Assembly: GCA_023091665.1 (NCBI GenBank)
Contig: JALJCQ010000001.1
Location: forward strand, 2,790,001 to 2,854,000
Origin: Pythium myriotylum
Lineage: Eukaryota; Oomycota; Peronosporomycetes; Pythiales; Pythiaceae
Direction of reading: 5' to 3'
DNA: 64,000 bases
In this document: piece by piece, positions 2,992 to 59,655 of the stretch
Numbering within the stretch: the first letter of the stretch is position 1
Layout: each line of letters begins with the position of its first letter
The notes under the pieces: generated by a model
Database searches by the model: none
What the model was told of the DNA's origin: nothing
Seen by the model: only the letters and a program-made list of their open reading frames with translations
Translations under genes and position numbers: made by a program

Positions 2992-3032
2992 GCCACCACA
3001 CCACCACATAACCACACCACCACACCGGCCAC

Positions 3033-7049: not shown

Positions 7050-8503
7050 ACCACGAGGGGTACCAATCACAAAACACATCAAATCACAACCACGCGACAA
7101 CAACAAACACGAACACCTCCTGCACCAATACGAACTACCCACAACACACAAACACACACAAACACAACTACCACACGACACCACCCACACAACACCTCTC
7201 CTACCCCTCTTCATGCCTCTCCGCTTGCCCTCATCGCCGCACGGTATCTCATCTCACAAACCACCCCACTCCACCCAAAACAACACCTACTCCTCCTACA
7301 TCCAACATCCAACGCACACACACCGTAACAGACGCTCGATGTCGCGGCTCCTACCGTCGACACTACCACAAACTACTGCTTCCACCCCCCGCCACCACAC
7401 CACCACATAACCACACCACCACACCGGCCACACCGGCACACCATCAATCGTGTGCCGGTCCTCGTTGGGGCCAGTTGTCTCGGGAACGAACACAAAACAC
7501 AACAACAAACGACGACGACAACAAAACGACAACCAAAACCAACACGAACCAAGCGAACAGAGACACAGACACACAGACACACAGACACACAGACACACAG
7601 ACACACAGAGACACAGAGACACAGAAACACAAAGACACAGAGCCAGCACCTCGGCACTCATCCACGGTCGGGCACTGTCCCAAGCCGCTCGCTCGAGGCT
7701 GCTACAGGCTCCACTGTCCGAGACAGCCCTGACCGATACGAACCCGAACTGGATAGAGCAGGACAGAGCAAGACGCAAACCAATACGAGAGCTGAAGAGA
7801 GGCACGGAGATGAGAGGGCGGAGACAACAGGGGAGAGGAAGAAAGGAGGGACACCCCACTGACAGCCAAACACAACATCATACACCACAAATATCCAACG
7901 AAACAAACGAACGAGCACAAACGAGCACACGCGACGACGAGAGACCTGGCCGCCAGGGTGCTCCGTCACACTCCCGTTCGCTGTCACAAATGCGCCGCGG
8001 CGCGGCACGGATCAGTACCGATCAGTGACGGGTCGCGAGCGACGGCAGAGGAGATGGGAGTGGTCCAAAGCAGGAGCCGAGCGTCAAGCGTCAAGCGTCA
8101 CGCGTCAAGCGTCACGCGTCAAGCGTCAAGCGTCACGCGTCAAGCGTCACGCGTCAAGCGTCGTGAGTCGAGGATGGAGCTGTCGTGCTGTCGCGAGGAC
8201 TGAGCGTGGGGAGCCGAGAGTGGGGGTGCGAGTCGAGAGGCGGAGGACGGGAGGCGAGAGGACAGGAGGCGAGAGGACAGGAGGTGAGAGGCGAGAGGAC
8301 AGGAGGCGAGAGGTGAGGGGCGAGAGGCAGGAGGCAGGAAGGAAGTGATGGAGGGACCGGGTACACGGAGGGAGGGACGCGTTGGGGTGTCAACGGGTTC
8401 CAGGTTGGACGCGAGGTGAATTGGAGGGAGTAGGAGACGATGTGTTGTGCATGTGGCATTGACCGGGTGGGATGGGATGGCGAGGAAAGAGAGGAAAAGA
8501 AAA

Positions 8504-8575
8504 GTCCTCGACGGGACTCGAACCCGCAATCTCCCGCTTCGTAGGCGGATGCCTTATCCATTGGGCCACGAGGAC
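8504..8575 (-). tRNA. tRNA-Arg(ACG), copy 4, with LINE 1 at its 5' end
   Basis: 1526 bp after copy 3 because both minisatellites are expanded. Its 5' flank is replaced by the full-length LINE from 8578. The gene is complete because the target duplication supplies nucleotides 1-13. Confidence 0.97.
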
Positions 8576-8577
8576 AC
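8563..8577. repeat. Target-site duplication, left copy, LINE 1
   Basis: GGGCCACGAGGACAC, repeated exactly at 15934-15948. It covers tRNA nucleotides 13 to 1 (minus strand) plus two flanking bases. Confidence 0.95.
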
Positions 8578-8676
8578 TTCTCGTTTTGCCTCGTCGAGCA
8601 CAAGTCGATCCAAGCAAACAGCCGAAGTAACCAGCCTACCAGCCTCCCGGCCTCCCAGCCTTCCCGCCGAACGAAG
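8578..8676 (+). promoter_or_regulatory. LINE 5' UTR
   Basis: It is only 99 bp and begins TTCTCGTTTT two bases upstream of the tRNA start. It contains pyrimidine-rich repeats (ccagcct, cggcctc) just before the ORF1 ATG, which has A at -3. The tRNA is transcribed the other way, so the two units are divergent. Any LINE promoter must lie here, inside ORF1, or be borrowed from the tRNA gene; I see no TATA box. Confidence 0.6.
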
Positions 8677-11393
8677 ATGAAGCCAGCGAACCAGATCGAC
8701 TCGGCCTGCCCATCTCCCTCCGACCTCGACTTTGTGGGTGAGAACCCTCCCGCGCAGCTGCTCCGTCCCGTCTCTGCACAAGATTCGGGAAGCCTCACCC
8801 ATTGTGAGCCACCATCTGGTCCGGATGGTGCCAGTGCGACTGCCGACGACCCTGCGACGCCCGCGCCCGTATCTCACGTGACTTCGAAGTCAGTGAATGC
8901 GCAAGCCCCAGTCAGCTCCGGCACGACCACCACCTCCGCGGTCGACGACGCCGACGCTCCTTCAACCGCCGACGGACCCGCCTCTACCGCCCGCATCGTG
9001 GATGTCGGTGCCGGTATGACGGTGCTCGTGACAGGCTCCGCTCCGGTGGCGTCTGGTGTCGAGATCTCCGTTGCGCTTTCCAGTTCGACCGACTCGCCCG
9101 CGAACACTGGGACTACTGCTGTCTCCTGTGGCGACGATGACGACGACGACTTGATGATGGCGGCGACCTCGCTCCAGCTCAGTCTCGCCTCAAGCCCCGA
9201 CGAATCAACTGTTGAAGACTCGACTACGACTGATTCGACCCCGGATCCGATTCCGGATGCTCAGCAACCGCCTGCCAGTGCGGCAGGTGCGACGCCTTCG
9301 CTTGGTGCTCTTCTACGCCGTCCAACCGAGATTCGCCGTGACAGAACTCCCGTCTCGGCGACCAGTCGTGTGGTGCTGCCTCGACCGTGTGCTGCGGATA
9401 TCGAAGCGATTGACGCGCTGTACGAGAACGGTGGCGACTGGGCCTCGCTCTTCACGTCAGTTGAACAAGCGCGCCCGTACGAGCTCCCGCGCGCTCGTTA
9501 CGTCATGACCATCGACACTGGTCGCGCGTTCGAGCGTACCGGCATCAACAAGATCATGGCGTCTTTTCTCAAGGACAACGGGAACCCCGTGGTCACCGAG
9601 CAGATCAAGCTTCAAGAACTCGGCCAGATCTCCAAGGGTCGTGGCGGAGAAATCCGCGTCAAGGTCAAGTCACGTGCTGCGTGCGAACGCCTTGCGCGTC
9701 AGGAAGTCAAGATCCTCGGTGGCAAGTACATGTTCCAAGACTTCGACGTCCTCACCGATCGCTTCTACATCGACATCTCGAGCGTCGACAGCAACTTCGA
9801 CAACGAAGGTCTTCTGCGCGCGTTCTTCGACATCGGCAGCGAGCCGATCTACGACACGTTCCGCGACGTCAACCTCGCGTCCGGAATGACGACAGCAACG
9901 TGGCGCGTCTACTTTCGAAGTGCGACGTGCCCAAGAGCGCTGTGTGTGCAAGGCTTCACGTGCGACCAAGTCATCTTCGGCAGCCGCATGTACCCAGCTT
10001 TGGCGCGCGACGCCGCGTTCCCGTCCCAGCGACGTGGTTTCGGTCAGGTGTCGCCACACGCTTTGGACTTGGACAAGATCAACAAGCCTACTCCGCCAGC
10101 ACCAGTGCAACCGTCCGAGCCGGCTGCTCCGACTTCGTACGCAGACGCGGTGAAGAACGGTGTCTCGCAAGCGGAGTCCAAGTCGCAAGACTCTGCAAGC
10201 GTCATCTCGGTCGGTACGCACGCGGGATCGCTGTTGACGCCTCCGGGTAGTCCGCAGCCTGGAACCAAGTCTCTGCCGCCGCCGCCACCGCCGCTCGGTC
10301 TGTCCGCGTCCAACGCAGATCGTCCGGAAAACGGAACCAAATCGACCAAGTCCAAGGGCAAGCGCTCGCGTTACGCCGACGACTTTGCCGACATGTTACA
10401 GAAGGCGCGACCGAAGCCCGTGCAAGGCATCGCGACAAGCAACTACTTCGAAGTGTTGAACTCCATCGAGTTCGAACTCGACTGCTGCAATGCGGCGCTC
10501 AACGAGTCGAGCCTGCCGCGGTTCCAGGTCGTGCCTCGCAAGGTCAAGGGTCCCGACACGATCAAGACCAGCAAGGAGTCGAGTCACTTCTTGACCAAGC
10601 ACCACACTCTGGTCATGAAGACGAAGGAACCGACGTCAATCCAAGAGATCCTCGCCGAACTCGAGACGACCGAGCCCACCGCCGACCTCCAGCTCCAGTC
10701 GAACCATATCGCTGCAGCGGACGTTGGTGCGGAATCACTTCGGAAGACTCTCCGCAACACGGCCAACCCGGACACGATCGGCCATCTTGCCGGTGGGAAG
10801 TCTCCGCTCGCGTTCACTCTGTGCTGCTCGGCGAGATGAGTGACCTCAGCGGCAACGTCAAGGAACTCGCACAGCTCCACATGATCAATCGTGTGTTGAG
10901 CGCGACTGATCCAAACTCGTGTACGACCTTCGCGCACAAGTGGGCTGCGCACTACGGTGAGAAGCTGCCGAAGGATCGCAATGACATCTTCAAGATGACG
11001 GGACGGTGGTATCGTGATGAGCGAATGTCGGCGCTCTTGCGAGCCACGTGCGCGCTCTCGTTGTTCGAGTTGATGCTCATGTGCACGGCGCCGCAGATCT
11101 TCCAGAGCGACATGTGGATCCAGCGCCTTACCGGAGCTCCAGTCGGGTGGATTCCAGCACTCAACGGTCGTTTGCTCCACCCCAACGTGTTGTTGGCACT
11201 GCTGCGCTCCGACTTGGGCGCACAGATCTTTGCTGTGTGGGAGAAGATCCAGTGGCAAGGCGAGCTTCTCGACGACCTCGAATATCTTCGCACGTGCGGC
11301 TTGTACTTCTCCGACGACGAAGCGGTTCTCCAGCTTACGGCTGTCAACGGCGTCGCAACACTAGGTGCCGGACCGCTCTGCCTCGACTGCTAA
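8677..11393 (+). pseudogene. LINE ORF1, copy 1, frameshifted
   Basis: Same protein as the intact ORF1 at 59755-62472, from ATG at 8677, but one A is missing near 10816 ('gttcactc' against 'gttcaactc'). The frame therefore ends at 10839 after 720 codons. The remaining C-terminal part (about 190 codons) stays open in another frame up to the normal stop at 11391-11393. Apart from this and one substitution (Pro for Thr near 8850), the sequence agrees with the other copy, so the loss is recent or an assembly error. Domains are described under the intact copy. Confidence 0.9.
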
Positions 11394-14300
11394 AGCGGTC
11401 GAGGCGGACGCGGCCGAGGTCTCGTGGGAGAACATCAGTCTTTTGACGGTGAACACCAACGGGATCAAGAAGAACGGCCACCTGTTGATCGAGAACCAGC
11501 TCATCAAGAACAGTCTCTCGTGCGTCCAAGAGACCAAGCTGCGCGACTCGCATCATCGTGCAACGCTCCAATTCCACCATGACTCAAGATTTCAACACCG
11601 CCTCTTCGTCAGCGACACCAACGCGCACAGTCCAGTTGCCGTTGCTGCACGATCGGGTGGCGTCATGACAGTGCTCCGCTCCGACTTTCCCGGGTTTCAG
11701 TCTGCTTGTGAGCAGTCTTCGTTGACTATTCAAGGCCGCTACTTGGTCGTCCGGGTCGTCGCGAACGGTGCTCCGATCTACATCCACAACGTGTACGCGC
11801 CAGTCGATAACTTCGAGAAGAAGGGGTTCTTCGAAGCGCTACCGTACGAAGTGTTCGAAGACAATGCGACTCACCTGGTGCTCGGTGACCTCAACACGCC
11901 ACTCGACCCCCTCGTCGATGCGTCGGATCCAAGGGCGACAGGAACGACCGGCGGTAACGCGTGTGTGGCGTGGTTGGCCCAGCTCGGTGTCGTGGATGCC
12001 TGGCGAATCCACCATCCCGACGAACGCGTCTACACTGGTCCACAGCCTCGACACAACCGTCTCGACTACATCCTCATGTCAGAAGACTTCTGCACCGCGC
12101 TGTACGGTGACTCCTTGTACTTTGAGCCCAAGGGTGCCGGCGACCATCTCGCACATCAAGTTGTGTTGCGCGCGATGAGCCAGCCTCAAGGCCACGGGTA
12201 CTGGCGTTTCCAGTCGGCGATGCTCGACTTCCCCGATATCGTTGAAGCTATCCAAGGCGAAGCGACGACTGTGCTTGCTGCGTTACGGCGCTCCTCCAAC
12301 CCGGGCAAGGTGTGGCACAAGTGGAAGAAGGGCATGCGTCGTCAGCTTCAAGCTCTGCAGCGCAAGCTGAAGCGTCAAGGCGAGACCGCCACCACCGAAG
12401 CTCGTCAGGCACTTGCCCACGCGGCTGCGGCATACCGGTCGGTGCGAAGCGATCGCGCGCAGACGGTGTTCCAGACCGCACTGACGGCATACCAAGACAG
12501 CATCAACTCGGCGCGTCTTTACAACCAAGACTCGGCTTTCGACTTCCAGGCTCAACACGCGGAGAAGTCATCCAAGTACTTCTTTCGACCGCTGGACGGA
12601 TCCTTGCGGAGAGTCAGCATCGAAGAAGTGCGGCTTCAAGATGGCTCAGCATCAAGCAACCCCGCGGATATCGCGGCTGCCTTCAATCAGCACTGGGGCG
12701 GTATCATGGGCGATGTTGAGCGCGGTGGTGTTGTCGTCCAAGAGCCTGAGCAGAGCCAGATTGACCGGATGCTCGACACGATCGACCGCCGACTGTCTGA
12801 AGACGAGCAAAATATCCTCAACGCTCCGATCACAGCGGCGGACCTCGCCAGTGCAATCAAGAAGATGCGAGCATCGTCAGCGCCCGGGATGGACGGGCTT
12901 CCAGCTGCCTTCTACCAGGTGGCTCCTGGCGTGTTCGGTGAATGCCTGGAGATCGTGTTCAACTACCAACTTCAGCGAGGCGAGCTTCTTCGGTGCCAAC
13001 GCCAGTCGGCGATCAGTCTGCTGCACAAGAAGGGATCCCGAGCTGACCCAGGCAACTATCGCCCAATTGCTTTGATGGGTGTCGACGTGAAGGCACTGTC
13101 AAAGGTTCTCGCTTTCCGACTGCAGTTGTTCCTGACCAAGCTTGTGCACCAAGACCAGAAGGCTTTCGTGCGTGGTCGCTCTCTGCATCACCACGTTCGT
13201 TTCGTGAGTGACCTGCAAGACCTCGTCACCGCGCGCGACGAGGAAGCCTACGCCATGTTCCTCGACTTTGAGAAGGCGTACGACCGCGTCAACTGGAACT
13301 ACATGTTTCAGGTGCTCGATCGGATGGGATGTGGCGGGGCGTTCTCGGGGTGGGTGAAGCTCCTGTACACTCGACCACACGCGCATCTCATGATCAACGG
13401 ATTCGTGCAAGACCCGCTCTGCCCAACGCGCGGAGTCAAGCAAGGTGATCCGCTGTCGGCGCTGCTGTTCTTGCTTGTTATCGAGCCACTCGGTAACCTG
13501 CTCCGCCAGCACGAAGAACATAGGATCTGCTTGACAGCGGATGCCACCGTCACGAGTATTTTCTTCGCCGACGACTCGACGTTACTGTCGGGCTCTATCG
13601 CTGGTGTCGAGGCGCAACTTGGGTTGGTCGAAGAATACTGTCAAGGCTCCGGCGCCAAGCTCAACGTGAACAAGTGTGTGCTGATGTCGCTGCATCGAAC
13701 GCGGCGATGCCCGGGCATACCAGGTGTGCAGGTTCTCGATGAAGACTCCACGGTCAAGTTCCTCGGTCTCCTGTTCGGTCAACGACGCACAACGGAATTG
13801 ATTGTTGAAGACCTCGATCGACGCTTCTTTGACGGGTTCAAGCAGTGGTTTCGGCGCGCACGGACGCTCCAAGGCAGGCTCCTCGTCGCCCAGACCATGG
13901 TGCTCTCACGTCTGTGGCACTACACTGCTCACGTTGTTGTGCCGCCAGGACGAGTGAAGAAGTGGCAAGCCGCGCTACACCGGTTCGTCTTGAGTCGGCG
14001 CTACGAACGCGACGCTCGGCATGTCCAGTTGATCTCGAACGAATTTGTCAACCTGCCGCGCGAGTCTGGGGGTCTGCAGGTACCGAGTCTCGACGGTGTG
14101 CTCAAGCGACAGTCACTGCAGCTCCTGCTTCAGTTCACGGCAGCTTCGGCATCGACGACCGGCAACTGGACGGTAGCAGGAGTCGAGCTGCTGCGGATCA
14201 GTCTTCCGCGGTGGGGCCCGCAGAGGCCACTCGACTTTCTCTACGTCAGTCCGTGGCGGCATCGAGGCTCGATCGAGTGGGGGCAGCTCTCTTCGTGGTG

Positions 14301-15723
14301 GCGTGCGGCCTGGAAGACTTGGTACGGTATCAAGTGGCCGGTGTCGTGGCTCGACCTCCCCCCAGAAGAACGGCTTGCGTCTGCACTCGACCAACCGATC
14401 TGGTTCCATGGCGACAAGAACTTCCAGTTCCTCCCAACCAGCCGTTCCGACACAACGCCGTCCCAGCATCGTTCTCTCAGCATGATTGCAGAGCCGCAAC
14501 GAAGCTTCCGTCGGCAAGTTGCCCGTGTCTTTCAGTTGCGATCTCTTCGTGACTTCGCTGGTGAAGGCGACAAGTGGCCGAGCGCGATCGAGTTTGCTGA
14601 GCGACATGTCGACTACACCCAAGTCTCCATCACCCCGTATCGACAGTACACGTGGCTGCTCAAGCTTCACGAGGAAGCCACGCAAGTTTTCGGGCGTCTC
14701 TGCACAATGTGCTCTGTCCCAGTCGATGGAGTGCTACCGACGGCGCCTGAGCACCAACATCCGCGAGTCGGTGTGAAGATCAACGACCGTGTGTGCTGGG
14801 TGCCGCGCATTCCACGATCCCAACTGCTCCGCCTGGTGTGGCAAGCTCCAGAGCCGACGAGAACGCATCCGCTGTTCTTCCACGACCCTCGAGCGCCTAC
14901 AGACGTGGTCCTCCGATTCAACAAGCTCCGCAAGCGTCTGCGTGTGTTGCTCCTCCCGATATACGAAGACCTCCAGTTCCGCTTGGCGTACGGCTTGTTA
15001 CCGACTCGCTCACGCTTCTCGTTCATGACGGTGGCAAATCCCGGCATCGTGTACTGTGTTCGACAAGGCTGCAACTCAGTGGAGACGGCGCGTCATTTGT
15101 TCTTCGAGTGTGTGCTGCCGACTGTGATATGGCGCGACATCTTCCGTGATATGTCGGTGTTCTTCACATCTCGACCCTCCTGGACCGACATTGTCTTCGG
15201 TAAAGCCATCCGCGTTGCTCCCGTGTGGAAGGACCACGCAGAAGAAATCCAAGACCTGTGGCAAGTCATCCGTGCAGTGGTGCTTCACCTGTTGTGGTCT
15301 GAACGCAATGGGCGACTGTTCAACGGGCGGTCCCCGATGCCAACAATTGCAGCACTGCGTGTGGTGTATACGACTGTGGGTGCTCATGTGCGTGCGTGTC
15401 TTCGACGTACGACGATGTGCAGCGTGCTTCGCTTCAGGTTGTGTTGTCAAGTCTCCAGTCTACGCCTTCGCTTGGTGCCTTCATGCAAAACAACATGGGG
15501 TTGTTTGCAGTTCGCTTTTTGGCATAAAAGAATTTCGTGCCGATTCTTCTTCTTCTTCTTGGCTGTGGAGGGTTTTCAACCAATCGCAGTTCGAGTTCGT
15601 CCCGAACACAAGCCAGAGGAGACCCGCGCGACCGAAGTCAAGCACCAGAATTTTAGACCACAAGGCAAGTGTCCGATCCGGGGTTCGAACCCGCGACCAG
15701 TAACTTCGGATCCACACTCTTAA
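11365..15723 (+). CDS. LINE ORF2: APE endonuclease / reverse transcriptase, copy 1 (C-terminus frameshifted)
   Basis: The 1452-codon frame opens just after an in-frame TAG (11362-11364) and overlaps ORF1 by 29 bases in the +1 frame. It has no ATG before the endonuclease. Residues 24-270 form an APE-like endonuclease: VNTNG (29-33), QETKL (55-59), NVYAP (142-146), GDLN (174-177), RLDYIL (232-237), GDHLAH (259-264). Reverse transcriptase follows: APGMDGLP (506-513), NYRPIAL (564-570), LDFEKAYDRV with catalytic Asp 634, GVKQGDPLS (690-698), FADD (734-737). A CX4CX7HX4C knuckle lies at 1231-1249. No RNase H domain is visible. This order is L1-type. Near 15408 four bases (gtgt) present in LINE 2 and 4 are missing, replacing the last 38 or so residues by a read-through tail. 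Confidence 0.95.
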   Translation: MPDRSASTAKAVEADAAEVSWENISLLTVNTNGIKKNGHLLIENQLIKNSLSCVQETKLRDSHHRATLQFHHDSRFQHRLFVSDTNAHSPVAVAARSGGVMTVLRSDFPGFQSACEQSSLTIQGRYLVVRVVANGAPIYIHNVYAPVDNFEKKGFFEALPYEVFEDNATHLVLGDLNTPLDPLVDASDPRATGTTGGNACVAWLAQLGVVDAWRIHHPDERVYTGPQPRHNRLDYILMSEDFCTALYGDSLYFEPKGAGDHLAHQVVLRAMSQPQGHGYWRFQSAMLDFPDIVEAIQGEATTVLAALRRSSNPGKVWHKWKKGMRRQLQALQRKLKRQGETATTEARQALAHAAAAYRSVRSDRAQTVFQTALTAYQDSINSARLYNQDSAFDFQAQHAEKSSKYFFRPLDGSLRRVSIEEVRLQDGSASSNPADIAAAFNQHWGGIMGDVERGGVVVQEPEQSQIDRMLDTIDRRLSEDEQNILNAPITAADLASAIKKMRASSAPGMDGLPAAFYQVAPGVFGECLEIVFNYQLQRGELLRCQRQSAISLLHKKGSRADPGNYRPIALMGVDVKALSKVLAFRLQLFLTKLVHQDQKAFVRGRSLHHHVRFVSDLQDLVTARDEEAYAMFLDFEKAYDRVNWNYMFQVLDRMGCGGAFSGWVKLLYTRPHAHLMINGFVQDPLCPTRGVKQGDPLSALLFLLVIEPLGNLLRQHEEHRICLTADATVTSIFFADDSTLLSGSIAGVEAQLGLVEEYCQGSGAKLNVNKCVLMSLHRTRRCPGIPGVQVLDEDSTVKFLGLLFGQRRTTELIVEDLDRRFFDGFKQWFRRARTLQGRLLVAQTMVLSRLWHYTAHVVVPPGRVKKWQAALHRFVLSRRYERDARHVQLISNEFVNLPRESGGLQVPSLDGVLKRQSLQLLLQFTAASASTTGNWTVAGVELLRISLPRWGPQRPLDFLYVSPWRHRGSIEWGQLSSWWRAAWKTWYGIKWPVSWLDLPPEERLASALDQPIWFHGDKNFQFLPTSRSDTTPSQHRSLSMIAEPQRSFRRQVARVFQLRSLRDFAGEGDKWPSAIEFAERHVDYTQVSITPYRQYTWLLKLHEEATQVFGRLCTMCSVPVDGVLPTAPEHQHPRVGVKINDRVCWVPRIPRSQLLRLVWQAPEPTRTHPLFFHDPRAPTDVVLRFNKLRKRLRVLLLPIYEDLQFRLAYGLLPTRSRFSFMTVANPGIVYCVRQGCNSVETARHLFFECVLPTVIWRDIFRDMSVFFTSRPSWTDIVFGKAIRVAPVWKDHAEEIQDLWQVIRAVVLHLLWSERNGRLFNGRSPMPTIAALRVVYTTVGAHVRACLRRTTMCSVLRFRLCCQVSSLRLRLVPSCKTTWGCLQFAFWHKRISCRFFFFFLAVEGFQPIAVRVRPEHKPEETRATEVKHQNFRPQGKCPIRGSNPRPVTSDPHS

Positions 15724-15743
15724 ACGTCTGAGCTACCCGCAGC
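15671..15743 (-). other. Antisense tRNA-like module in LINE 3' UTR, version A
   Basis: On the minus strand there is an A box (TAGCTCAGACG), a D arm GCTC/GAGT, and a perfect B box GGGTTCGAACCC, which is also a 12-bp palindrome. The acceptor ends do not pair well and the anticodon arm is weak. It is therefore a degenerate tRNA or tRNA mimic, not a translation tRNA. It lies antisense to the LINE. Confidence 0.7.
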
Positions 15744-15933
15744 TATTGAACCGACATGCTAAAACAAGTACCTAGACCAGTCAAGACCAACGGAAGTCGA
15801 CCACCAACTCAACAACTGAAGCCCCCAGCCTCGTCACACATTAGTCAAGTGTATAATATTCATCGACGAGGTAGATTAGAGTAGTCATAGTCGCATTAAT
15901 TTTAGTTAATACAGACGCCTTGAAACTGAAACT

Positions 15934-15948
15934 GGGCCACGAGGACAC
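15934..15948. repeat. Target-site duplication, right copy, LINE 1
   Basis: GGGCCACGAGGACAC, matching 8563-8577. To its right the ordinary spacer resumes (caccacgaggggtacc). This side keeps only the first 13 nt of the tRNA gene. Confidence 0.95.
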
Positions 15949-20199: not shown

Positions 20200-20271
20200 G
20201 TCCTCGACGGGACTCGAACCCGCAATCTCCCGCTTCGTAGGCGGATGCCTTATCCATTGGGCCACGAGGAC
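20200..20271 (-). tRNA. tRNA-Arg(ACG), copy 7, with LINE 2 at its 5' end
   Basis: 1447 bp after copy 6. Complete gene bordered at its 5' end by truncated LINE 2. Its unit shares the private change cgcaagg (near 19920) with the first unit to the right of LINE 2. Confidence 0.97.
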
Positions 20272-20276
20272 ATCTC

Positions 20277-22418
20277 ATGATCAACGGATTCGTGCAAGAC
20301 CCGCTCTGCCCAACGCGCGGAGTCAAGCAAGGTGATCCGCTGTCGGCGCTGCTGTTCTTGCTTGTTATCGAGCCACTCGGTAACCTGCTCCGCCAGCACG
20401 AAGAACATGGGATCTGCTTGACAGCGGATGCCACCGTCACGAGTGTTTTCTTCGCCGACGACTCGACGTTACTGTCGGGCTCTATCGCTGGTGTCGAGGC
20501 GCAACTTGGGTTGGTCGAAGAATACTGTCAAGGCTCCGGCGCCAAGCTCAACGTGAACAAGTGTGTGCTGATGTCGCTGCATCGAACGCGGCGATGCCCG
20601 GGCATACCAGGTGTGCAGGTTCTCGATGAAGACTCCACGGTCAAGTTCCTCGGTCTCCTGTTCGGTCAACGACGCACAACGGAATTGATTGTTGAAGACC
20701 TCGATCGACGCTTCTTTGACGGGTTCAAGCAGTGGTTTCGGCGCGCACGGACGCTCCAAGGCAGGCTCCTCGTCGCCCAGACCATGGTGCTCTCACGTCT
20801 GTGGCACTACACTGCTCACGTTGTTGTGCCGCCAGGACGAGTGAAGAAGTGGCAAGCCGCGCTACACCGGTTCGTCTTGAGTCGGCGCTACGAACGCGAC
20901 GCTCGGCATGTCCAGTTGATCTCGAACGAATTTGTCAACCTGCCGCGCGAGTCTGGGGGTCTGCAGGTACCGAGTCTCGACGGTGTGCTCAAGCGACAGT
21001 CACTGCAGCTCCTGCTTCAGTTCACGGCAGCTTCGGCATCGACGACCGGCAACTGGACGGTAGCAGGAGTCGAGCTGCTGCGGATCAGTCTTCCGCGGTG
21101 GGGCCCGCAGAGGCCACTCGACTTTCTCTACGTCAGTCCGTGGCGGCATCGAGGCTCGATCGAGTGGGACCAGCTCTCTTCGTGGTGGCGTGCGGCCTGG
21201 AAGACTTGGTACGCTATCAAGTGGCCGGTGTCGTGGCTCGACCTCCCTCCAGAAGACCGTCTTGCGTTTGCACTCGACCAACCGATCTGGTTCCATGGCG
21301 ACAAGAACTTCCAGTTCCTCCCAACCAGCCGTTCCGACACAACGCCGTCCCAGCATCGTTCTCTCAGCATGATTGCAGAGCTGCAACGAAGCTTCCGTCG
21401 GCAAGTTGCCCGTGTCTTTCAGTTGCGATCTCTTCGTGACTTCGCTGGTGAAGGCGACAAGTGGCCGAGCGCGATCGAGTTTGCTGAGCGACATGTCGAC
21501 TACACCCAAGTCTCCATCACCCCGTATCGACAGTACACGTGGCTGCTCAAGCTTCACGAGGAAGCCACGCAAGTTTTCGGGCGTCTCTGCACAATGTGCT
21601 CTGTCCCAGTCGATGGAGTGCTACCGACGGCGCCTGAGCACCAACATCCGCGAGTCGGTGTGGAGATCAACGACCGTGTGTGCTGGGTGCCGCGCATTCC
21701 ACGATCCCAACTGCTCCGCCTGGTGTGGCAAGCTCCAGAGCCGACGAGAACGCATCCGCTGTTCTTCCACGACCCTCGAGCGCCTACAGACGTGGTCCTC
21801 CGATTCAACAAGCTACGCAAGCGGCTTCGTGTGTTGCTTCTCCCGATATACGAAGACCTCCAGTTCCGCTTGGCGTACGGCTTGTTACCGACTCGCTCAC
21901 GCTTCTCGTTCATGACGGTGGCAAATCCCGGCATCGTGTACTGTGTTCGACAAGGCTGCAACTCAGTGGAGACGGCGCGTCATTTGTTCTTCGAGTGTGT
22001 GCTGCCGACTGTGATATGGCGCGACATCTTCCGTGATATGTCGGTGTTCTTCACATCTCGACCCTCCTGGACCGACATTGTCTTCGGTAAAGCCATCCGC
22101 GTTGCTCCCGTGTGGAAGGACCACACAGAAGAAATCCAAGACCTGTGGCAAGTCATCCGTGCTGTGGTGCTTCACCTGTTGTGGACTGAACGCAATGGGC
22201 GACTGTTCAACGGGCGGTCCCCGATGCCAACAATTGCAGCACTGCGTGTGGTGTATACGACTGTGGGTGCTCATGTGCGTGCGTGTCTTCGACGTGTGTA
22301 CGACGATGCGCAGCGTGCTTCGCTTCAGGTTGTGTTGTCAAGTCTCCAGTCTACGCCTTCTTTCGGTGCCTTCCTGCAAAACAACATGGGGTTGTTTGCA
22401 GTTCGCTTTTTGGCATAA
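20277..22418 (+). pseudogene. LINE ORF2 remnant (RT part and C-terminus), copy 2
   Basis: Open for 713 codons from an internal Met equal to residue 676 of ORF2. It keeps GVKQGDPLS, FADD and the CCHC knuckle but lacks the endonuclease and the first catalytic Asp block. The C-terminus ends ...GLFAVRFLA without the four-base loss of copy 1, so it shows the native end of ORF2 (about 1388 residues in full). It is unlikely to be active alone. Confidence 0.92.
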
Positions 22419-22551
22419 AAGCGATTTCCTGCCGTTTCTTCTTCTTCAGTGCGGGTGCTTGCTTTCAATACTGGCTCGAAACCAACCTCGTTTTGGAATC
22501 AGAGCGTACCTTCGCGACCGAAGTCAAGCGAAACCACTAGCACAAGAAACC

Positions 22552-22628
22552 TCCCCGAGGTGGGGATCGAACCCGCGCGACCGACAACATCGGGGTCCAC
22601 GCTCACAACCATTTGAGCTAACCGCAGT
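22552..22628 (-). other. Antisense tRNA-like module in LINE 3' UTR, version B
   Basis: On the minus strand there is an A box TTAGCTCAAATGG, a perfect 4-bp D stem GCTC/GAGC with GG in the loop, and a B box GGTTCGATCCC. It differs from version A at many positions but keeps position, strand and both Pol III boxes. The acceptor stem does not close properly. Confidence 0.7.
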
Positions 22629-24203
22629 TATCCAACCGATGTGCTAAAACAAGTACCTAGACCAGTCAAGACCAACGGAAGTCAACCAACAACTCAACTG
22701 AAGCTCCCAGCCTCGTCACATACTAGTCAAGTGTATAATATTCATCGACGAGGTAGATTAGAGTAGTCATAGTCGCATTAATTTTAGTTAATACAGACGC
22801 CTTGAAACTGAAACTGGGCCACGAGGACACCACGAGGGGTACCAATCACAAAACACATCAAATCACAACCACGCGACAACAACAAACACGAACACCTCCT
22901 GCACCAATACGAACTACCCACAACACACAAACACACACAAACACAACTACCACACGACACCACCCACACAACACCTCTCCTACCCCTCTTCATGCCTCTC
23001 CGCTTGCCCTCATCGCCGCACGGTATCTCATCTCACAAACCACCCCACTCCACCCAAAACAACACCTACTCCTCCTACATCCAACATCCAACGCACACAC
23101 ACCGTAACAGACGCTCGATGTCGCGGCTCCTACCGTCGACACTACCACAAACTACTGCTTCCACCCCCCGCCACCACACCACCACATAACCACACCACCA
23201 CACCGGCCACACCGGCACACCATCAATCGTGTGCCGGTCCTCGTTGGGGCCAGTTGTCTCGGGAACGAACACAAAACACAACAACAAACGACGACAACAA
23301 CAAAACGACAACCAAAACCAACACGAACCAAGCGAACAGAGACACAGACACACAGACACACAGACACACAGACACACAGACACACAGAGACACAGAGACA
23401 CAGAAACACAAAGACACAGAGCCAGCACCTCGGCACTCATCCACGGTCGGGCACTGTCCCAAGCCGCTCGCTCGAGGCTGTTACAGGCTCCACTGTCCGA
23501 GACAGCCCTGACCGATACGAACCCGAACTGGATAGAGCAGGACAGAGCAAGACGCAAACCAATACGAGAGCTGAAGAGAGGCACGGAGATGAGAGGGCGG
23601 AGACAACAGGGGAGAGGAAGAAAGGAGGGACACCCCACTGACAGCCAAACACAACATCATACACCACAAATATCCAACGAAACAAACGAACGAGCACAAA
23701 CGAGCACACGCGACGACGAGAGACCTGGCCGCCAGGGTGCTCCGTCACACTCCCGTTCGCTGTCACAAATGCGCCGCGGCGCGGCACGGATCAGTACCGA
23801 TCAGTGACGGGTCGCGAGCGATGGCAGAGGAGATGGGAGTGGTCCAAAGCAGGAGCCGAGCGTCAAGCGTCAAGCGTCACGCGTCAAGCGTCGTGAGTCG
23901 AGGATGGAGCTGTCGTGCTGTCGCAAGGACTGAGCGTGGGGAGCCGAGAGTGGGGGTGCGAGTCGAGAGGCGGAGGACGGGAGGCGAGAGGACAGGAGGC
24001 GAGAGGTGAGGGGCGAGAGGCAGGAGGCAGGAGGCAGGAAGGAAGTGATGGAGGGACCGGGTACACGGAGGGAGGGACGCGTTGGGGTGTCAACGGGTTC
24101 CAGGTTGGACGCGAGGTGAATTGGAGGGAGTAGGAGACGATGTGTTGTGCATGTGGCATTGACCGGGTGGGATGGGATGGCGAGGAAAGAGAGGAAAAGA
24201 AAA

Positions 24204-29975: not shown

Positions 29976-30047
29976 GTCCTCGACGGGACTCGAACCCGCA
30001 ATCTCCCGCTTCGTAGGCGGATGCCTTATCCATTGGGCCACGAGGAC
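29976..30047 (-). tRNA. tRNA-Arg(ACG), copy 12, with LINE 3 at its 5' end
   Basis: 1447 bp after copy 11. Complete gene bordered by truncated LINE 3. Confidence 0.97.
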
Positions 30048-30052
30048 ATCTC

Positions 30053-32386
30053 ATGATCAACGGATTCGTGCAAGACCCGCTCTGCCCAACGCGCGGAGTC
30101 AAGCAAGGTGATCCGCTGTCGGCGCTGCTGTTCTTGCTTGTTATCGAGCCACTCGGTAACCTGCTCCGCCAGCACGAAGAACATGGGATCTGCTTGACAG
30201 CGGATGCCACCGTCACGAGTATTTTCTTCGCCGACGACTCGACGTTACTGTCGGGCTCTATCGCTGGTGTCGAGGCGCAACTTGGGTTGGTCGAAGAATA
30301 CTGTCAAGGCTCCGGCGCCAAGCTCAACGTGAACAAGTGTGTGCTGATGTCGCTGCATCGAACGCGGCGATGCCCGGGCATACCAGGTGTGCAGGTTCTC
30401 GATGAAGACTCCACGGTCAAGTTCCTCGGTCTCCTGTTCGGTCAACGACGCACAACGGAATTGATTGTTGAAGACCTCGATCGACGCTTCTTTGACGGGT
30501 TCAAGCAGTGGTTTCGGCGCGCACGGACGCTCCAAGGCAGGCTCCTCGTCGCCCAGACCATGGTGCTCTCACGTCTGTGGCACTACACTGCTCACGTTGT
30601 TGTGCCGCCAGGACGAGTGAAGAAGTGGCAAGCCGCGCTACACCGGTTCGTCTTGAGTCGGCGCTACGAACGCGACGCTCGGCATGTCCAGTTGATCTCG
30701 AACGAATTTGTCAACCTGCCGCGCGAGTCTGGGGGTCTGCAGGTACCGAGTCTCGACGGTGTGCTCAAGCGACAGTCACTGCAGCTCCTGCTTCAGTTCA
30801 CGGCAGCTTCGGCATCGACGACCGGCAACTGGACGGTAGCAGGAGTCGAGCTGCTGCGGATCAGTCTTCCGCGGTGGGGCCCGCAGAGGCCACTCGACTT
30901 TCTCTACGTCAGTCCGTGGCGGCATCGAGGCTCGATCGAGTGGGACCAGCTCTCTTCGTGGTGGCGTGCGGCCTGGAAGACTTGGTACGCTATCAAGTGG
31001 CCGGTGTCGTGGCTCGACCTCCCTCCAGAAGACCGTCTTGCGTTTGCACTCGACCAACCGATCTGGTTCCATGGCGACAAGAACTTCCAGTTCCTCCCAA
31101 CCAGCCGTTCCGACACAACGCCGTCCCAGCATCGTTCTCTCAGCATGATTGCAGAGCCGCAACGAAGCTTCCGTCGGCAAGTTGCCCGTGTCTTTCAGTT
31201 GCGATCTCTTCGTGACTTCGCTGGTGAAGGCGACAAGTGGCCGAGCGCGATCGAGTTTGCTGAGCGACATGTCGACTACACCCAAGTCTCCATCACCCCG
31301 TATCGACAGTACACGTGGCTGCTCAAGCTTCACGAGGAAGCCACGCAAGTTTTCGGGCGTCTCTGCACAATGTGCTCTGTCCCAGTCGATGGAGTGCTAC
31401 CGACGGCGCCTGAGCACCAACATCCGCGAGTCGGTGTGGAGATCAACGACCGTGTGTGCTGGGTGCCGCGCATTCCACGATCCCAACTGCTCCGCCTGGT
31501 GTGGCAAGCTCCAGAGCCGACGAGAACGCATCCGCTGTTCTTCCACGACCCTCGAGCGCCTACAGACGTGGTCCTCCGATTCAACAAGCTACGCAAGCGG
31601 CTTCGTGTGTTGCTTCTCCCGATATACGAAGACCTCCAGTTCCGCTTGGCGTACGGCTTGTTACCGACTCGCTCACGCTTCTCGTTCATGACGGTGGCAA
31701 ATCCCGGCATCGTGTACTGTGTTCGACAAGGCTGCAACTCAGTGGAGACGGCGCGTCATTTGTTCTTCGAGTGTGTGCTGCCGACTGTGATATGGCGCGA
31801 CATCTTCCGTGATATGTCGGTGTTCTTCACATCTCGACCCTCCTGGACCGACATTGTCTTCGGTAAAGCCATCCGCGTTGCTCCCGTGTGGAAGGACCAC
31901 GCAGAAGAAATCCAAGACCTGTGGCAAGTCATCCGTGCAGTGGTGCTTCACCTGTTGTGGTCTGAACGCAATGGGCGACTGTTCAACGGGCGGTCCCCGA
32001 TGCCAACAATTGCAGCACTGCGTGTGGTGTATACGACTGTGGGTGCTCATGTGCGTGCGTGTCTTCGACGTACGACGATGTGCAGCGTGCTTCGCTTCAG
32101 GTTGTGTTGTCAAGTCTCCAGTCTACGCCTTCGCTTGGTGCCTTCATGCAAAACAACATGGGGTTGTTTGCAGTTCGCTTTTTGGCATAAAAGAATTTCG
32201 TGCCGATTCTTCTTCTTCTTCTTGGCTGTGGAGGGTTTTCAACCAATCGCAGTTCGAGTTCGTCCCGAACACAAGCCAGAGGAGACCCGCGCGACCGAAG
32301 TCAAGCACCAGAATTTTAGACCACAAGGCAAGTGTCCGATCCGGGGTTCGAACCCGCGACCAGTAACTTCGGATCCACACTCTTAA
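30053..32386 (+). pseudogene. LINE ORF2 remnant, copy 3, with frameshifted C-terminus
   Basis: Open for 777 codons. It matches copy 2 up to about 31620 and copy 1 from about 31903 on. It keeps FADD and the CCHC knuckle, then carries the four-base loss near 32071, so the frame reads into the 3' UTR and stops inside the tRNA-like module, as in copy 1. Confidence 0.92.
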
Positions 32387-32406
32387 ACGTCTGAGCTACC
32401 CGCAGC
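32334..32406 (-). other. Antisense tRNA-like module, version A (LINE 3)
   Basis: Same sequence as 15671-15743, including the GGGTTCGAACCC palindrome. Confidence 0.7.
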
Positions 32407-33970
32407 TATTGAACCGACATGCTAAAACAAGTACCTAGACCAGTCAAGACCAACGGAAGTCGATCACCAACTCAACAACTGAAGCCCCCAGCCTCGTCAC
32501 ACATTAGTCAAGTGTATAATATTCATCGACGAGGTAGATTAGAGTAGTCATAGTCGTATTAATTATAGTTAATACAGACGCCTTGAAACTGGGCCACGAG
32601 GACACCACGAGGGGTACCAATCACAAAACACATCAAATCACAACCACGCGACAACAACAAACACGAACACCTCCTGCACCAATACGAACTACCCACAACA
32701 CACAAACACACACAAACACAACTACCACACGACACCACCCACACAACACCTCTCCTACCCCTCTTCATGCCTCTCCGCTTGCCCTCATCGCCGCACGGTA
32801 TCTCATCTCACAAACCACCCCACTCCACCCAAAACAACACCTACTCCTCCTACATCCAACATCCAACGCACACACACCGTAACAGACGCTCGATGTCGCG
32901 GCTCCTACCGTCGACACTACCACAAACTACTGCTTCCACCCCCCGCCACCACACCACCACATAACCACACCACCACACCGGCCACACCGGCACACCATCA
33001 ATCGTGTGCCGGTCCTCGTTGGGGCCAGTTGTCTCGGGAACGAACACAAAACACAACAACAAACGACGACAACAACAAAACGACAACCAAAACCAACACG
33101 AACCAAGCGAACAGAGACACAGACACACAGACACACAGACACACAGACACACAGAGACACAGAGACACAGAAACACAAAGACACAGAGCCAGCACCTCGG
33201 CACTCATCCACGGTCGGGCACTGTCCCAAGCCGCTCGCTCGAGGCTGTTACAGGCTCCACTGTCCGAGACAGCCCTGACCGATACGAACCCGAACTGGAT
33301 AGAGCAGGACAGAGCAAGACGCAAACCAATACGAGAGCTGAAGAGAGGCACGGAGATGAGAGGGCGGAGACAACAGGGGAGAGGAAGAAAGGAGGGACAC
33401 CCCACTGACAGCCAAACACAACATCATACACCACAAATATCCAACGAAACAAACGAACGAGCACAAACGAGCACACGCGACGACGAGAGACCTGGCCGCC
33501 AGGGTGCTCCGTCACACTCCCGTTCGCTGTCACAAATGCGCCGCGGCGCGGCACGGATCAGTACCGATCAGTGACGGGTCGCGAGCGATGGCAGAGGAGA
33601 TGGGAGTGGTCCAAAGCAGGAGCCGAGCGTCAAGCGTCAAGCGTCACGCGTCAAGCGTCGTGAGTCGAGGATGGAGCTGTCGTGCTGTCGCGAGGACTGA
33701 GCGTGGGGAGCCGAGAGTGGGGGTGCGAGTCGAGAGGCGGAGGACGGGAGGCGAGAGGACAGGAGGCGAGAGGTGAGGGGCGAGAGGCAGGAGGCAGGAG
33801 GCAGGAAGGAAGTGATGGAGGGACCGGGTACACGGAGGGAGGGACGCGTTGGGGTGTCAACGGGTTCCAGGTTGGACGCGAGGTGAATTGGAGGGAGTAG
33901 GAGACGATGTGTTGTGCATGTGGCATTGACCGGGTGGGATGGGATGGCGAGGAAAGAGAGGAAAAGAAAA

Positions 33971-36848: not shown

Positions 36849-36920
36849 GTCCTCGACGGGACTCGAACCCGCAATCTCCCGCTTCGTAGGCGGATGCCTT
36901 ATCCATTGGGCCACGAGGAC
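36849..36920 (-). tRNA. tRNA-Arg(ACG), copy 15, with LINE 4 at its 5' end
   Basis: 1439 bp after copy 14. Complete gene bordered by truncated LINE 4. Confidence 0.97.
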
Positions 36921-36925
36921 ATCTC

Positions 36926-39067: not shown

Positions 39068-39200
39068 AAGCGATTTCCTGCCGTTTCTTCTTCTTCAGTG
39101 CGGGTGCTTGCTTTCAATACTGGCTCGAAACCAACCTCGTTTTGGAATCAGAGCGTACCTTCGCGACCGAAGTCAAGCGAAACCACTAGCACAAGAAACC

Positions 39201-39277
39201 TCCCCGAGGTGGGGATCGAACCCGCGCGACCGACAACATCGGGGTCCACGCTCACAACCATTTGAGCTAACCGCAGT
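39201..39277 (-). other. Antisense tRNA-like module, version B (LINE 4)
   Basis: Same as 22552-22628: A box, D stem GCTC/GAGC and B box GGTTCGATCCC on the minus strand. Confidence 0.7.
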
Positions 39278-40844
39278 TATCCAACCGATGTGCTAAAACA
39301 AGTACCTAGACCAGTCAAGACCAACGGAAGTCAACCAACAACTCAACTGAAGCTCCCAGCCTCGTCACATACTAGTCAAGTGTATAATATTCATCGACGA
39401 GGTAGATTAGAGTAGTCATAGTCGCATTAATTTTAGTTAATACAGACGCCTTGAAACTGAAACTGGGCCACGAGGACACCACGAGGGGTACCAATCACAA
39501 AACACATCAAATCACAACCACGCGACAACAACAAACACGAACACCTCCTGCACCAATACGAACTACCCACAACACACAAACACACACAAACACAACTACC
39601 ACACGACACCACCCACACAACACCTCTCCTACCCCTCTTCATGCCTCTCCGCTTGCCCTCATCGCCGCACGGTATCTCATCTCACAAACCACCCCACTCC
39701 ACCCAAAACAACACCTACTCCTCCTACATCCAACATCCAACGCACACACACCGTAACAGACGCTCGATGTCGCGGCTCCTACCGTCGACACTACCACAAA
39801 CTACTGCTTCCACCCCCCGCCACCACACCACCACATAACCACACCACCACACCGGCCACACCGGCACACCATCAATCGTGTGCCGGTCCTCGTTGGGGCC
39901 AGTTGTCTCGGGAACGAACACAAAACACAACAACAAACGACGACAACAACAAAACGACAACCAAAACCAACACGAACCAAGCGAACAGAGACACAGACAC
40001 ACAGACACACAGACACACAGACACACAGACACACAGAGACACAGAAACACAAAGACACAGAGCCAGCACCTCGGCACTCATCCACGGTCGGGCACTGTCC
40101 CAAGCCGCTCGCTCGAGGCTGTTACAGGCTCCACTGTCCGAGACAGCCCTGACCGATACGAACCCGAACTGGATAGAGCAGGACAGAGCAAGACGCAAAC
40201 CAATACGAGAGCTGAAGAGAGGCACGGAGATGAGAGGGCGGAGACAACAGGGGAGAGGAAGAAAGGAGGGACACCCCACTGACAGCCAAACACAACATCA
40301 TACACCACAAATATCCAACGAAACAAACGAACGAGCACAAACGAGCACACGCGACGACGAGAGACCTGGCCGCCAGGGTGCTCCGTCACACTCCCGTTCG
40401 CTGTCACAAATGCGCCGCGGCGCGGCACGGATCAGTACCGATCAGTGACGGGTCGCGAGCGATGGCAGAGGAGATGGGAGTGGTCCAAAGCAGGAGCCGA
40501 GCGTCAAGCGTCAAGCGTCACGCGTCAAGCGTCGTGAGTCGAGGATGGAGCTGTCGTGCTGTCGCGAGGACTGAGCGTGGGGAGCCGAGAGTGGGGGTGC
40601 GAGTCGAGAGGCGGAGGACGGGAGGCGAGAGGACAGGAGGCGAGAGGTGAGGGGCGAGAGGCAGGAGGCAGGAGGCAGGAAGGAAGTGATGGAGGGACCG
40701 GGTACACGGAGGGAGGGACGCGTTGGGGTGTCAACGGGTTCCAGGTTGGACGCGAGGTGAATTGGAGGGAGTAGGAGACGATGTGTTGTGCATGTGGCAT
40801 TGACCGGGTGGGATGGGATGGCGAGGAAAGAGAGGAAAAGAAAA

Positions 40845-59653: not shown

Positions 59654-59655
59654 AC
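59641..59655. repeat. Target-site duplication, left copy, LINE 5
   Basis: GGGCCACGAGGACAC, the same 15 bases as beside LINE 1. The right copy lies beyond the window. Confidence 0.85.

What the first reader, a model, noticed from the sequence alone, without database searches (positions are those of the whole stretch)
8504..15948. A LINE family that inserts at one exact base inside tRNA-Arg(ACG) genes and leaves the gene intact
All five LINE copies join the array at the same bases. The 3' junction lies between tRNA nt 13 and 14, in the middle of the A box. The duplicated target GGGCCACGAGGACA(C) equals tRNA nt 1-13 plus 1-2 flanking bases. The duplication rebuilds the left tRNA gene completely, so the host gene survives with only its 5' flank changed. 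This parallels R-elements in rDNA. Known relatives in behaviour are Dictyostelium TRE elements, which insert near tRNA genes, and Tx1-group LINEs, which target multicopy RNA genes. Insertion inside the A box with regeneration of the tRNA would be distinctive. The 5' ends and 3' UTR versions point to at least two separate insertion events (full-length version A, truncated version B).
Basis: partly seen in the sequence, partly recalled or inferred. Interest (0 to 1): 0.92.

Follow-up and report, generated by a model that had tools for sequence, protein, structure and literature searches.

The report
LINE retrotransposon targeting tRNA-gene A boxes
A jumping gene in what is probably an oomycete (water mould) genome inserts at one exact spot inside the internal promoter of many different tRNA genes and duplicates that stretch, so the tRNA gene is rebuilt intact and a new landing site is left at the element's far end.

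Summary
In detail: five LINE copies in the window join tRNA-Arg(ACG) genes between nt 13 and 14, with a duplication that rebuilds the gene. "tRNA-Arg-specific" is too narrow. Of 40 genome-wide LINE 5' ends (40 of 78 candidates scored), 38 lie beside an intact tRNA gene, 37 within 0-3 nt of nt 1, in 15 isotypes; one sits at another element's junction, one in a LINE's internal tRNA-like. Of 217 exact LINE tails genome-wide, 201 continue TGAGCYA, the reversed A-box core; flanks put 9 more at A boxes, 5 elsewhere; 2 were not examined. The inferred cut is C13^A14. The tail restores most of box A at the far junction, where different elements have stacked; a 768-bp non-autonomous element shares the tail and forms chains. 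Off-targets keep TC^A and neighbouring genes without C13 look unhit, favouring DNA recognition over Pol III tethering; two copies beside tRNA-Pro (T13) and a bypassed tRNA-Ala-CGC box A go against this. Likely a new variant of site-specific LINE: many isotypes, promoter-box-directed, site-regenerating.

The parts
8503..8575 (-). Intact tRNA-Arg(ACG) gene rebuilt by the target duplication
   Evidence: ARAGORN; Rfam RF00005 60 bits, same as the other 28 genes
8563..8575 (.). Left copy of the target duplication (tRNA nt 13-1)
8576..15933 (+). Full-length LINE copy (about 7.36 kb); ends ambiguous by one or two shared bases
   Evidence: genome search
8677..10839 (+). ORF1 frame (720 aa); its C-terminal part continues in another frame at 10821-11393, so the frame is broken in this copy
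   Evidence: similarity to fused oomycete proteins; low-confidence model with an RRM-like stretch
11365..15723 (+). ORF2 frame with endonuclease and reverse transcriptase; the last residues are out of register with a relative (P0001) and run into the antisense tRNA-like
11446..12105 (+). APE-type endonuclease domain
   Evidence: PF03372 24.0 bits (cut-off 24.5), residues 28-247; solved L1 endonuclease matches
13024..13770 (+). Reverse transcriptase domain
   Evidence: PF00078 117.4 bits, residues 554-802
15668..15741 (-). Antisense tRNA-like module in the 3' UTR (box A core 15729-15735 by eye, perfect box B 15682-15692)
   Evidence: its box A is the landing site of another copy (L064/L038)
15934..15948 (.). 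Right copy of the target duplication (tRNA nt 13-1 plus 2 flanking bases); together with the LINE tail it remakes most of a box A
20271..22815 (+). 5'-truncated LINE copy, 3' UTR version B
22816..22830 (.). Right target duplication of that copy
30047..32590 (+). 5'-truncated LINE copy, same truncation, 3' UTR version A, one GAAACT unit fewer at the end
32591..32605 (.). Right target duplication of that copy
36920..39464 (+). 5'-truncated LINE copy, 3' UTR version B
39465..39479 (.). Right target duplication of that copy
59654..64000 (+). Second full-length LINE copy, runs off the window; its tail is at G000:C1:2856991-2857009

Best explanation
This is an APE-type, L1-like LINE, probably of an oomycete, that uses box A, the internal Pol III promoter element of tRNA genes, as its target. 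Inferred steps: (1) the endonuclease nicks the tRNA-sense strand between nt 13 (mostly C) and A14; (2) the 3' OH at nt 13 primes reverse transcription of the LINE RNA end (...GAAACU), so the first cDNA bases AGT replace nt 14-16; (3) the other strand is cut 13-15 bp away, at tRNA nt 1 or 1-2 bases before it. The fill-in rebuilds the whole tRNA gene, which now has the LINE's 5' end as its 5' flank. The other side keeps a fragment of nt 1-13 that, joined to the LINE tail, reads as a new box A (10 of 12 consensus positions). That regenerated box is a target again, so elements stack head to tail. A 768-bp non-autonomous element with the same 22-nt tail uses the same sites. Shown by sequence: junctions, duplications, intact tRNA genes, many isotypes, stacks of different elements, sequence of off-targets. 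Inferred: the nick position, recognition by the endonuclease itself, mobilisation of the short element in trans, and that the flanked tRNA genes still work.
For: 38 of 40 LINE 5' ends lie beside an intact tRNA gene, 37 at 0-3 nt from nt 1, in 15 isotypes (14 without Val, whose box A is not the site) and 26 distinct (isotype, contig, junction) states. 36 of 40 copies have both ends in hand; 35 duplications were found by script and the 36th read. All 40 have the same orientation to the tRNA gene, tRNA fragment or tRNA-like. Genome-wide, 201 of 217 exact tails continue TGAGCYA (about 1 in 8,000 if bases were equal and independent); flanks place 9 more at box A. Terminal GAAACT units vary in number, as expected of slippage at the start of reverse transcription. 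Stacks of different elements separated by the same tRNA fragment: L008 (short element then LINE), L012 (LINE, short element, truncated short element), C13 (LINE end then short element). One LINE sits in the box A of another LINE's tRNA-like. In the fetched loci, neighbouring His-GTG, Ser-AGA, Ser-GCT and Val-AAC genes, which lack C13, are not hit at box A. The four kinds of off-target with both flanks read all have TC^A and duplications of about 13-17 bp. 26 of 26 scored ORF2 matches have no stops.
Against: No biochemistry and no second genome were available. The 217 tails are not independent, because arrays amplify copies, and the 201 were counted by motif, not each checked for a tRNA gene. 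Five exact tails are outside box A: a tRNA-Ala box B on C7, two beside tRNA-Ala-CGC on C23, one 16 nt from tRNA-Val on C43, one non-tRNA site on C12; an older degenerate copy (L023) lies in Copia-like coding DNA. Two of 217 tails were not examined. Against the C13 rule: two LINE copies adjoin tRNA-Pro genes that have T13 (GGTCT^A), though their 3' ends were not found, and tRNA-Ala-CGC on C23 has a fitting TAGCTC^A box A that was bypassed for a site about 20 bp upstream. The 3' ends of 4 of 40 copies were not found. Of 9 short-element 5' flanks read, 5 are regular; the others are one 20 nt off, one with an inverted tRNA gene, one at a LINE junction and one with no tRNA gene. The unhit-neighbour comparison covers only the few isotypes that happened to lie in fetched loci.
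Confidence: 0.8

Rival explanations
1. Tethering: the LINE is brought to tRNA genes by TFIIIC or TFIIIB, as proposed for Dictyostelium TRE5-A, and the endonuclease cuts whatever DNA is presented; the exact base reflects geometry, not sequence.
For: Nearly all sites are Pol III genes. Two kinds of off-target lie within about 20 bp of a tRNA 5' end (C43, C23), one of them beside a fitting but unused box A. tRNA-Pro genes with T13 are also hit, judged by the 5' junction. TRE5-A is a precedent (PMC5391098, passages).
Against: In the fetched loci, neighbouring Pol III genes without C13 are not hit at box A: His beside Ala on C23, Ser with Trp on C11, Ser and Val on C43. Stacking occurs at 3' junctions with a box A but no box B within about 240 bp. 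An off-target away from any tRNA gene found by ARAGORN keeps TC^A (L142). A fixed base is unlike the 40-54 bp spread reported for TRE5 (PMC5911963, passages).
Confidence: 0.17
2. tRNA-Arg(ACG)-specific LINE, like an R-element of one multicopy gene.
For: All five window copies sit in tRNA-Arg(ACG).
Against: Only 2 of 40 LINE 5' ends and 5 of 217 exact tails are at tRNA-Arg.
Confidence: 0.01
3. Few insertions, spread by unequal crossing-over and gene conversion; the apparent specificity is inherited rather than repeated.
For: Within arrays it very likely happens: the three truncated window copies, repeated junction states, and similar short-element chains at three C4 places.
Against: Recombination within an array cannot carry one element into many isotypes with each isotype's own duplication, nor place two different elements side by side with a target fragment between them. 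There are 26 distinct junction states.
Confidence: 0.02

Closest known systems
D. purpureum NLTR-A (PMC5006619, abstract and passages)
   Same: Non-LTR element found 2-6 bp upstream of the first base of tRNA genes.
   Different: Has an RNase H domain after the RT, not seen here. The passages I saw mention no box A cut, gene rebuilding or stacking.
Dictyostelium TRE5 / TRE3 (PMC5391098, PMC5911963, passages)
   Same: Non-LTR elements with APE and RT domains that use tRNA genes as safe sites.
   Different: Insert 40-54 bp upstream or 40-150 bp downstream in a window, with evidence for Pol III factor tethering (TRE5); not inside the gene.
NeSL-1_TV (tRNA-Pro), LIN15_SM (tRNA-Arg), LIN25_SM (tRNA-Glu) (PMC4640811, passages)
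   Same: LINEs specific for tRNA genes.
   Different: One tRNA gene type each, and placed near the NeSL clade, whose members carry a restriction-like endonuclease (that detail partly recalled); this element has an APE-type one and hits many isotypes.
Dewa (spacer of tRNA-Leu), Keno (U2), Mutsu (5S) (PMC3706591, passages; their placing in the Tx1 group is recalled)
   Same: Target-specific LINEs of multicopy small-RNA loci.
   Different: Single gene family or spacer each. Phylogenetic membership not testable here.
R1 / R2 in 28S rDNA (PMC3706591, passages)
   Same: Exact-site LINE in tandem multicopy RNA genes.
   Different: rDNA target; there the insertion disrupts the gene unit (same paper), here the tRNA gene is rebuilt.
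Dada DNA transposons (PMC3706591, passages)
   Same: Insert inside tRNA and snRNA genes.
   Different: DDE transposase and 6-7 bp duplications; not LINEs.
P. effusa tRNA clusters called SINE-like (PMC11540230, passages)
   Same: Oomycete tRNA arrays with repeated non-tRNA DNA between the genes.
   Different: Explained there by recombination of SINE-like units; no LINE or box A insertion is described in the passages I saw.

Membership tests
Non-LTR retrotransposon (LINE) | Reverse transcriptase of LINE type | tested here: met
   PF00078 117.4 bits; best solved match L1 ORF2p
Non-LTR retrotransposon (LINE) | APE-type endonuclease in ORF2 | tested here: met
   PF03372 24.0 bits, just under the 24.5 cut-off; matches to solved L1 endonucleases; many relatives carry PF03372
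Non-LTR retrotransposon (LINE) | Target duplications and 5' truncation | tested here: met
   36 of 40 copies have both ends in hand, all 36 with a duplication; 5'-truncated LINE copies in the window
Site-specific LINE | Copies confined to one sequence site | tested here: met
   210 of 217 exact tails at box A (201 by motif alone), 5 elsewhere, 2 not examined
tRNA-Arg-specific LINE | Only tRNA-Arg(ACG) flanks | tested here: not met
   15 isotypes among 40 LINE copies
Tx1 group | RT groups with Tx1-clade elements | not testable with these tools
   No named Tx1 reference sequence was at hand; the RT tree only shows an oomycete-rich clade
TRE5 (Dictyostelium) | Insertion 40-54 bp upstream of the tRNA gene | tested here: not met
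   0-3 nt in 37 of 40 LINE copies, 16 nt in one
NLTR-A (D. purpureum) | RNase H domain after the RT | tested here: not met
   No RNase H family listed up to E = 1 in the ORF2 frame
NeSL / LIN group | Restriction-like endonuclease after the RT | tested here: not met
   APE-type endonuclease precedes the RT; no endonuclease family listed after it
SINE (the 768-bp element) | 3' tail shared with a LINE | tested here: met
   22 of 22 nt identical to the LINE tail
SINE (the 768-bp element) | Pol III promoter (boxes A and B) at the 5' end | tested here: not met
   No box B with up to 1 mismatch; one antisense box-A-like match with 1 mismatch only

The most novel reading that the evidence does not exclude
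The element reads the Pol III promoter itself: its endonuclease recognises box A as DNA, so in principle every tRNA gene with C13-A14 is a safe harbour that is rebuilt at each insertion. It also carries an antisense tRNA-like module with boxes A and B in its 3' UTR, which serves as a portable landing site and possibly as an antisense Pol III promoter.
Probability: 0.4. Interest if true: 0.88.

Novelty: new variant of a known kind. Interest (0 to 1): 0.78.

Why it matters
The tRNA-associated LINEs seen in the literature here either insert at a distance, in one case through Pol III factors, or target one tRNA type. An element that cuts inside the promoter box shared by many tRNA genes, rebuilds the gene and leaves a fresh target would explain how a LINE can accumulate in essential genes at little cost. 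It gives a concrete mechanism to test for some of the repeated units in oomycete tRNA arrays, and it offers an endonuclease with a highly conserved multicopy genomic target, of interest for site-specific insertion tools.

Tried and rejected
Arg-only specificity: rejected by the genome search. Spread by recombination alone: rejected by isotype-specific duplications and stacks of different elements. Relatives elsewhere: two scans of viral contigs gave none; one of genome contigs gave 18 distant loci (22-31% identity in the best segment) in records named as bacteria, not used. Divergent LINE families in the same genome: a 40%-identical relative used as query found only this family among the 26 ORF2 matches scored of 250 candidates. 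Tx1 versus L1: a second protein search brought mostly fish proteins and one mammalian, no named Tx1 reference among the 120 listed, so the RT tree cannot decide. Host species: not identified; an enolase locus was fetched but not searched further. The ORF1 model is of low confidence (mean pLDDT 47.7); Foldseek lists pairs of RRM domains for it, with low TM-scores. The 5' end of the degenerate copy L023 was sought and not found. The tRNA-like module is not scored as a tRNA by Rfam or by ARAGORN at its default setting; only a lowered threshold gave a poor model.
Full report
What is in the window. The window is part of a tandem array of tRNA-Arg(ACG) genes on the minus strand, 1.43-1.53 kb apart where no LINE intervenes, 29 genes in all. 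Five of the genes are followed directly, on the plus strand, by a LINE: full-length at 8576-15933, three 5'-truncated copies at 20271, 30047 and 36920, and a second full-length copy from 59654 that runs off the window. Each of the four 3' ends in the window is followed by GGGCCACGAGGACACC, which is tRNA nt 13 to 1 and the normal 5' flank; the fifth 3' end lies just outside and continues TGGGCC in the same way. The tRNA gene on the left is complete, and all 29 genes have the same Rfam score. The three truncated copies share one truncation point, so they are probably one insertion copied with the array; their 3' UTR comes in two versions.

The element. The ORF2 frame has an APE-type endonuclease (Pfam score just under its cut-off) and a reverse transcriptase and is closest among solved structures to L1 ORF2p. 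No RNase H was listed up to E = 1. The nearest proteins are from environmental samples and from Globisporangium splendens, about 60-70% identical. In an RT tree the element lies in a supported clade of 19 rows in which the rows with a readable organism name are Globisporangium, Peronospora, Aphanomyces and Thraustotheca, all oomycetes (one more name is cut off at "Plasmo"). The host is therefore taken to be an oomycete; it was not identified. The tree has no named Tx1 reference, so L1 versus Tx1 is open. In this copy the ORF1 frame is broken near 10820 and the end of ORF2 is out of register with a relative. Elsewhere in the genome 26 of 26 scored ORF2 matches have no stop, in frames of 1385-1388 aa for all but the window copy, which suggests recent activity (26 of 250 candidates scored). 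By coordinates 25 of these 26 belong to copies in the list; the 26th (C18:627412-630651) appears to be the outer LINE of a nested pair.

Where the other copies are. The genome (58.7 Mb, 55 contigs) was searched with the LINE 5' end; 40 of 78 candidates were scored and all 40 were followed up. 38 of 40 have an intact tRNA gene (ARAGORN) next to the LINE 5' end: 37 with 0-3 bases between tRNA nt 1 and the LINE, one (tRNA-Val on C43) with 16. There are 15 isotypes: Ala-AGC 6, Lys-CUU 6, Cys-GCA 5, Trp-CCA 4, Asn-GUU 3, Arg-ACG 2, Thr-AGU 2, Phe-GAA 2, Lys-UUU 2, and one each of Val-AAC, Tyr-GUA, Ile-AAU, Ile-UAU, Pro-UGG, Pro-AGG. The two others are a copy at the 3' junction of another element (L008) and a copy in the tRNA-like of another LINE (L064). 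Counting isotype, contig and last bases before the LINE gives 26 distinct states, a rough guide to independent events. For 36 of 40 copies both ends are in hand. A script found the duplication in 35; the 36th, the second full window copy, is read directly. The 3' ends of four copies were not found where expected.

Whole-genome tail count. The 19-base LINE tail AATACAGACGCCTTGAAAC occurs 217 times, with 0 for the reversed control. 201 continue TGAGCYA, the reverse complement of the box A core TRGCTCA. Of the other 16, five are the tRNA-Arg copies, three are at box A after extra GAAACT-type units (C11, C13, C17), and one is at box A of tRNA-Ala-UGC (TAGCGC^A). Five are not at box A: a tRNA-Ala box B on C7, two beside tRNA-Ala-CGC on C23 (the second read on its 3' side only), one near tRNA-Val on C43, and one non-tRNA place on C12 with its own duplication. 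Two were not examined. The 201 were counted by motif and not each checked for a tRNA gene. A further, older and degenerate copy with a changed tail (L023) lies in Copia-like coding DNA, recognised by eye; a search with it as query brought no other such copy among 40 of 64 candidates scored, but one copy on C4 whose 3' end is replaced by other DNA. So specificity is high but not absolute.

The cut. Comparing tRNA-Arg (GGCCC|AATGG) with the TAGCTC|AGT genes, both the LINE end and the target are explained if the nick is between nt 13 and A14 of the sense strand and reverse transcription starts AGTTTC. This is an inference from junctions. Extra terminal GAAACT units fit slippage at the start of reverse transcription. 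The same join in unrelated DNA (C12) with a duplication of about 16-17 bp suggests that the spacing of the two cuts belongs to the enzyme, not to the tRNA gene.

Why sequence recognition is favoured, and what speaks against it. In fetched loci, tRNA genes of other isotypes lie near or next to hit ones: His-GTG beside Ala on C23, Ser-GCT with Trp on C11, Ser-AGA and Val-AAC on C43. None of these is seen hit at box A, and none has C13 before A14. The four kinds of off-target with both flanks read all have TC^A (C7, C12, C23, C43). Two results go the other way. Two LINE copies adjoin tRNA-Pro genes with T13 (their 3' ends were not found), and tRNA-Ala-CGC on C23 has a fitting TAGCTC^A box A, yet the element there sits about 20 bp upstream. 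The comparison rests on few isotypes, and a mix of sequence reading and Pol III factors is not excluded. Oomycete tRNA arrays with Val/Ser pairs and Ser/Trp/Thr triplets are known from Phytophthora infestans (PMC9584435, passages).

A regenerated target. After insertion the 3' junction reads, on the tRNA strand, TAGCTC plus AGTTTC, which meets ten of the twelve positions of the box A consensus. Three loci show that it is used again by a different element: L008 (tRNA-Thr, short element, target fragment, LINE), L012 (LINE, fragment, short element, fragment, 5'-truncated short element, in a tRNA-Lys array), and C13 (LINE end, fragment, short element). The short element is 768 bp, shares only the last 22 bases and a similar first stretch with the LINE, and has no box B. 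67 matches were listed (40 of 131 candidates scored); 13 chains of two or more copies have spacers of 10-12 bp. The spacers that were read are box A fragments; on C4 and C12 the matching tRNA gene was called, on C13 it rests on the box A pattern of that array. Equal chains at three C4 places were probably copied as blocks. Of 9 short-element 5' flanks read, 5 are regular (tRNA nt 1 within 0-3 nt: Thr-CGT, Cys-GCA, Thr-TGT, Ala-AGC, Ile-AAT), one is about 20 nt off (Ala-CGC), one has an inverted tRNA-Asn gene, one is a LINE junction and one has no tRNA gene.

A tRNA-like inside the LINE. The 3' UTR carries, antisense, a module with a box A core and a perfect box B. In version B the same place has a clearly different sequence (56 and 49 differences in two adjacent 250-column blocks against 0-7 in the other blocks) that by eye still holds GAGCTA and a box B. 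It is not scored as a tRNA by Rfam. One LINE copy is inserted exactly in its box A (L064 and L038). A role as antisense Pol III promoter is a guess.

What is known. The literature seen here: TRE5 and TRE3 insert at a distance (PMC5911963, PMC5391098, passages); NLTR-A of D. purpureum lies 2-6 bp upstream of tRNA genes and is the closest in position (PMC5006619, passages); NeSL-1_TV, LIN15_SM and LIN25_SM are specific for one tRNA gene type each (PMC4640811, passages); Dewa is in a tRNA-Leu spacer and Dada DNA transposons are inside tRNA genes (PMC3706591, passages). Nine library searches were run. No title or abstract start in their listings, and no passage I read, reports a LINE that inserts at box A of many isotypes. 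That covers open-licence PubMed Central papers only, as listed. R4-2_SRa as a tRNA-Asp element is recalled; it was a search term and no paper listed there held it.

Verdict. A real and unusual feature: a site-specific LINE whose main target is the box A promoter element across tRNA genes, which rebuilds the gene and regenerates its own target. It works like the R-elements in strategy but is not tRNA-Arg-specific, and its clade beyond L1-like is open.

Noticed in passing
window 1-3000: Copia-like pol fragments in pieces on the plus strand at the edge of the tRNA array (recognised by eye from the translations; no family search was run).
   Followed up: no
L012:1801-2568; G000:C4:2511073-2515829; G000:C13:1593459-1597337: A 768-bp non-autonomous element with the LINE's 22-nt tail forms head-to-tail chains of up to six copies, spaced 10-12 bp; the spacers read are box A fragments.
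   Followed up: partly
window about 15550-15757 against about 22448-22642: A block of about 200 bp in the LINE 3' UTR with the antisense tRNA-like differs strongly between versions A and B while both flanks are nearly identical; the boxes are kept.
   Followed up: partly
L018:3057-3081: A piece of about 19-24 bp of tail alone sits in a tRNA-Cys gene with part of the gene missing, so this gene is destroyed rather than rebuilt.
   Followed up: no
L106 (G000:C30:1172930-1173090): The 5' junction of a short element shows an inverted tRNA-Asn gene, unlike the other junctions.
   Followed up: no
L110/L111 (G000:C46:50090-51060): Short element whose 3' side is a tRNA-Cys box A but whose 5' flank is not a tRNA gene, perhaps rearranged.
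   Followed up: no
L141 (G000:C7:577280-577520): 5'-truncated short element inserted in box B of a tRNA-Ala-UGC gene at TTC^A with a duplication of about 13 bp.
   Followed up: partly
G000:C3:1511140-1544051: An array of box A sites at 1,111-bp spacing is interrupted once by about 8.47 kb, the size of one unit plus the LINE copy beside tRNA-Tyr; a clean filled-against-empty comparison.
   Followed up: no
PMC11540230 (Peronospora effusa): Large variable tRNA clusters were called SINE-like there; a box A-directed LINE such as this one is worth looking for in those clusters.
   Followed up: no
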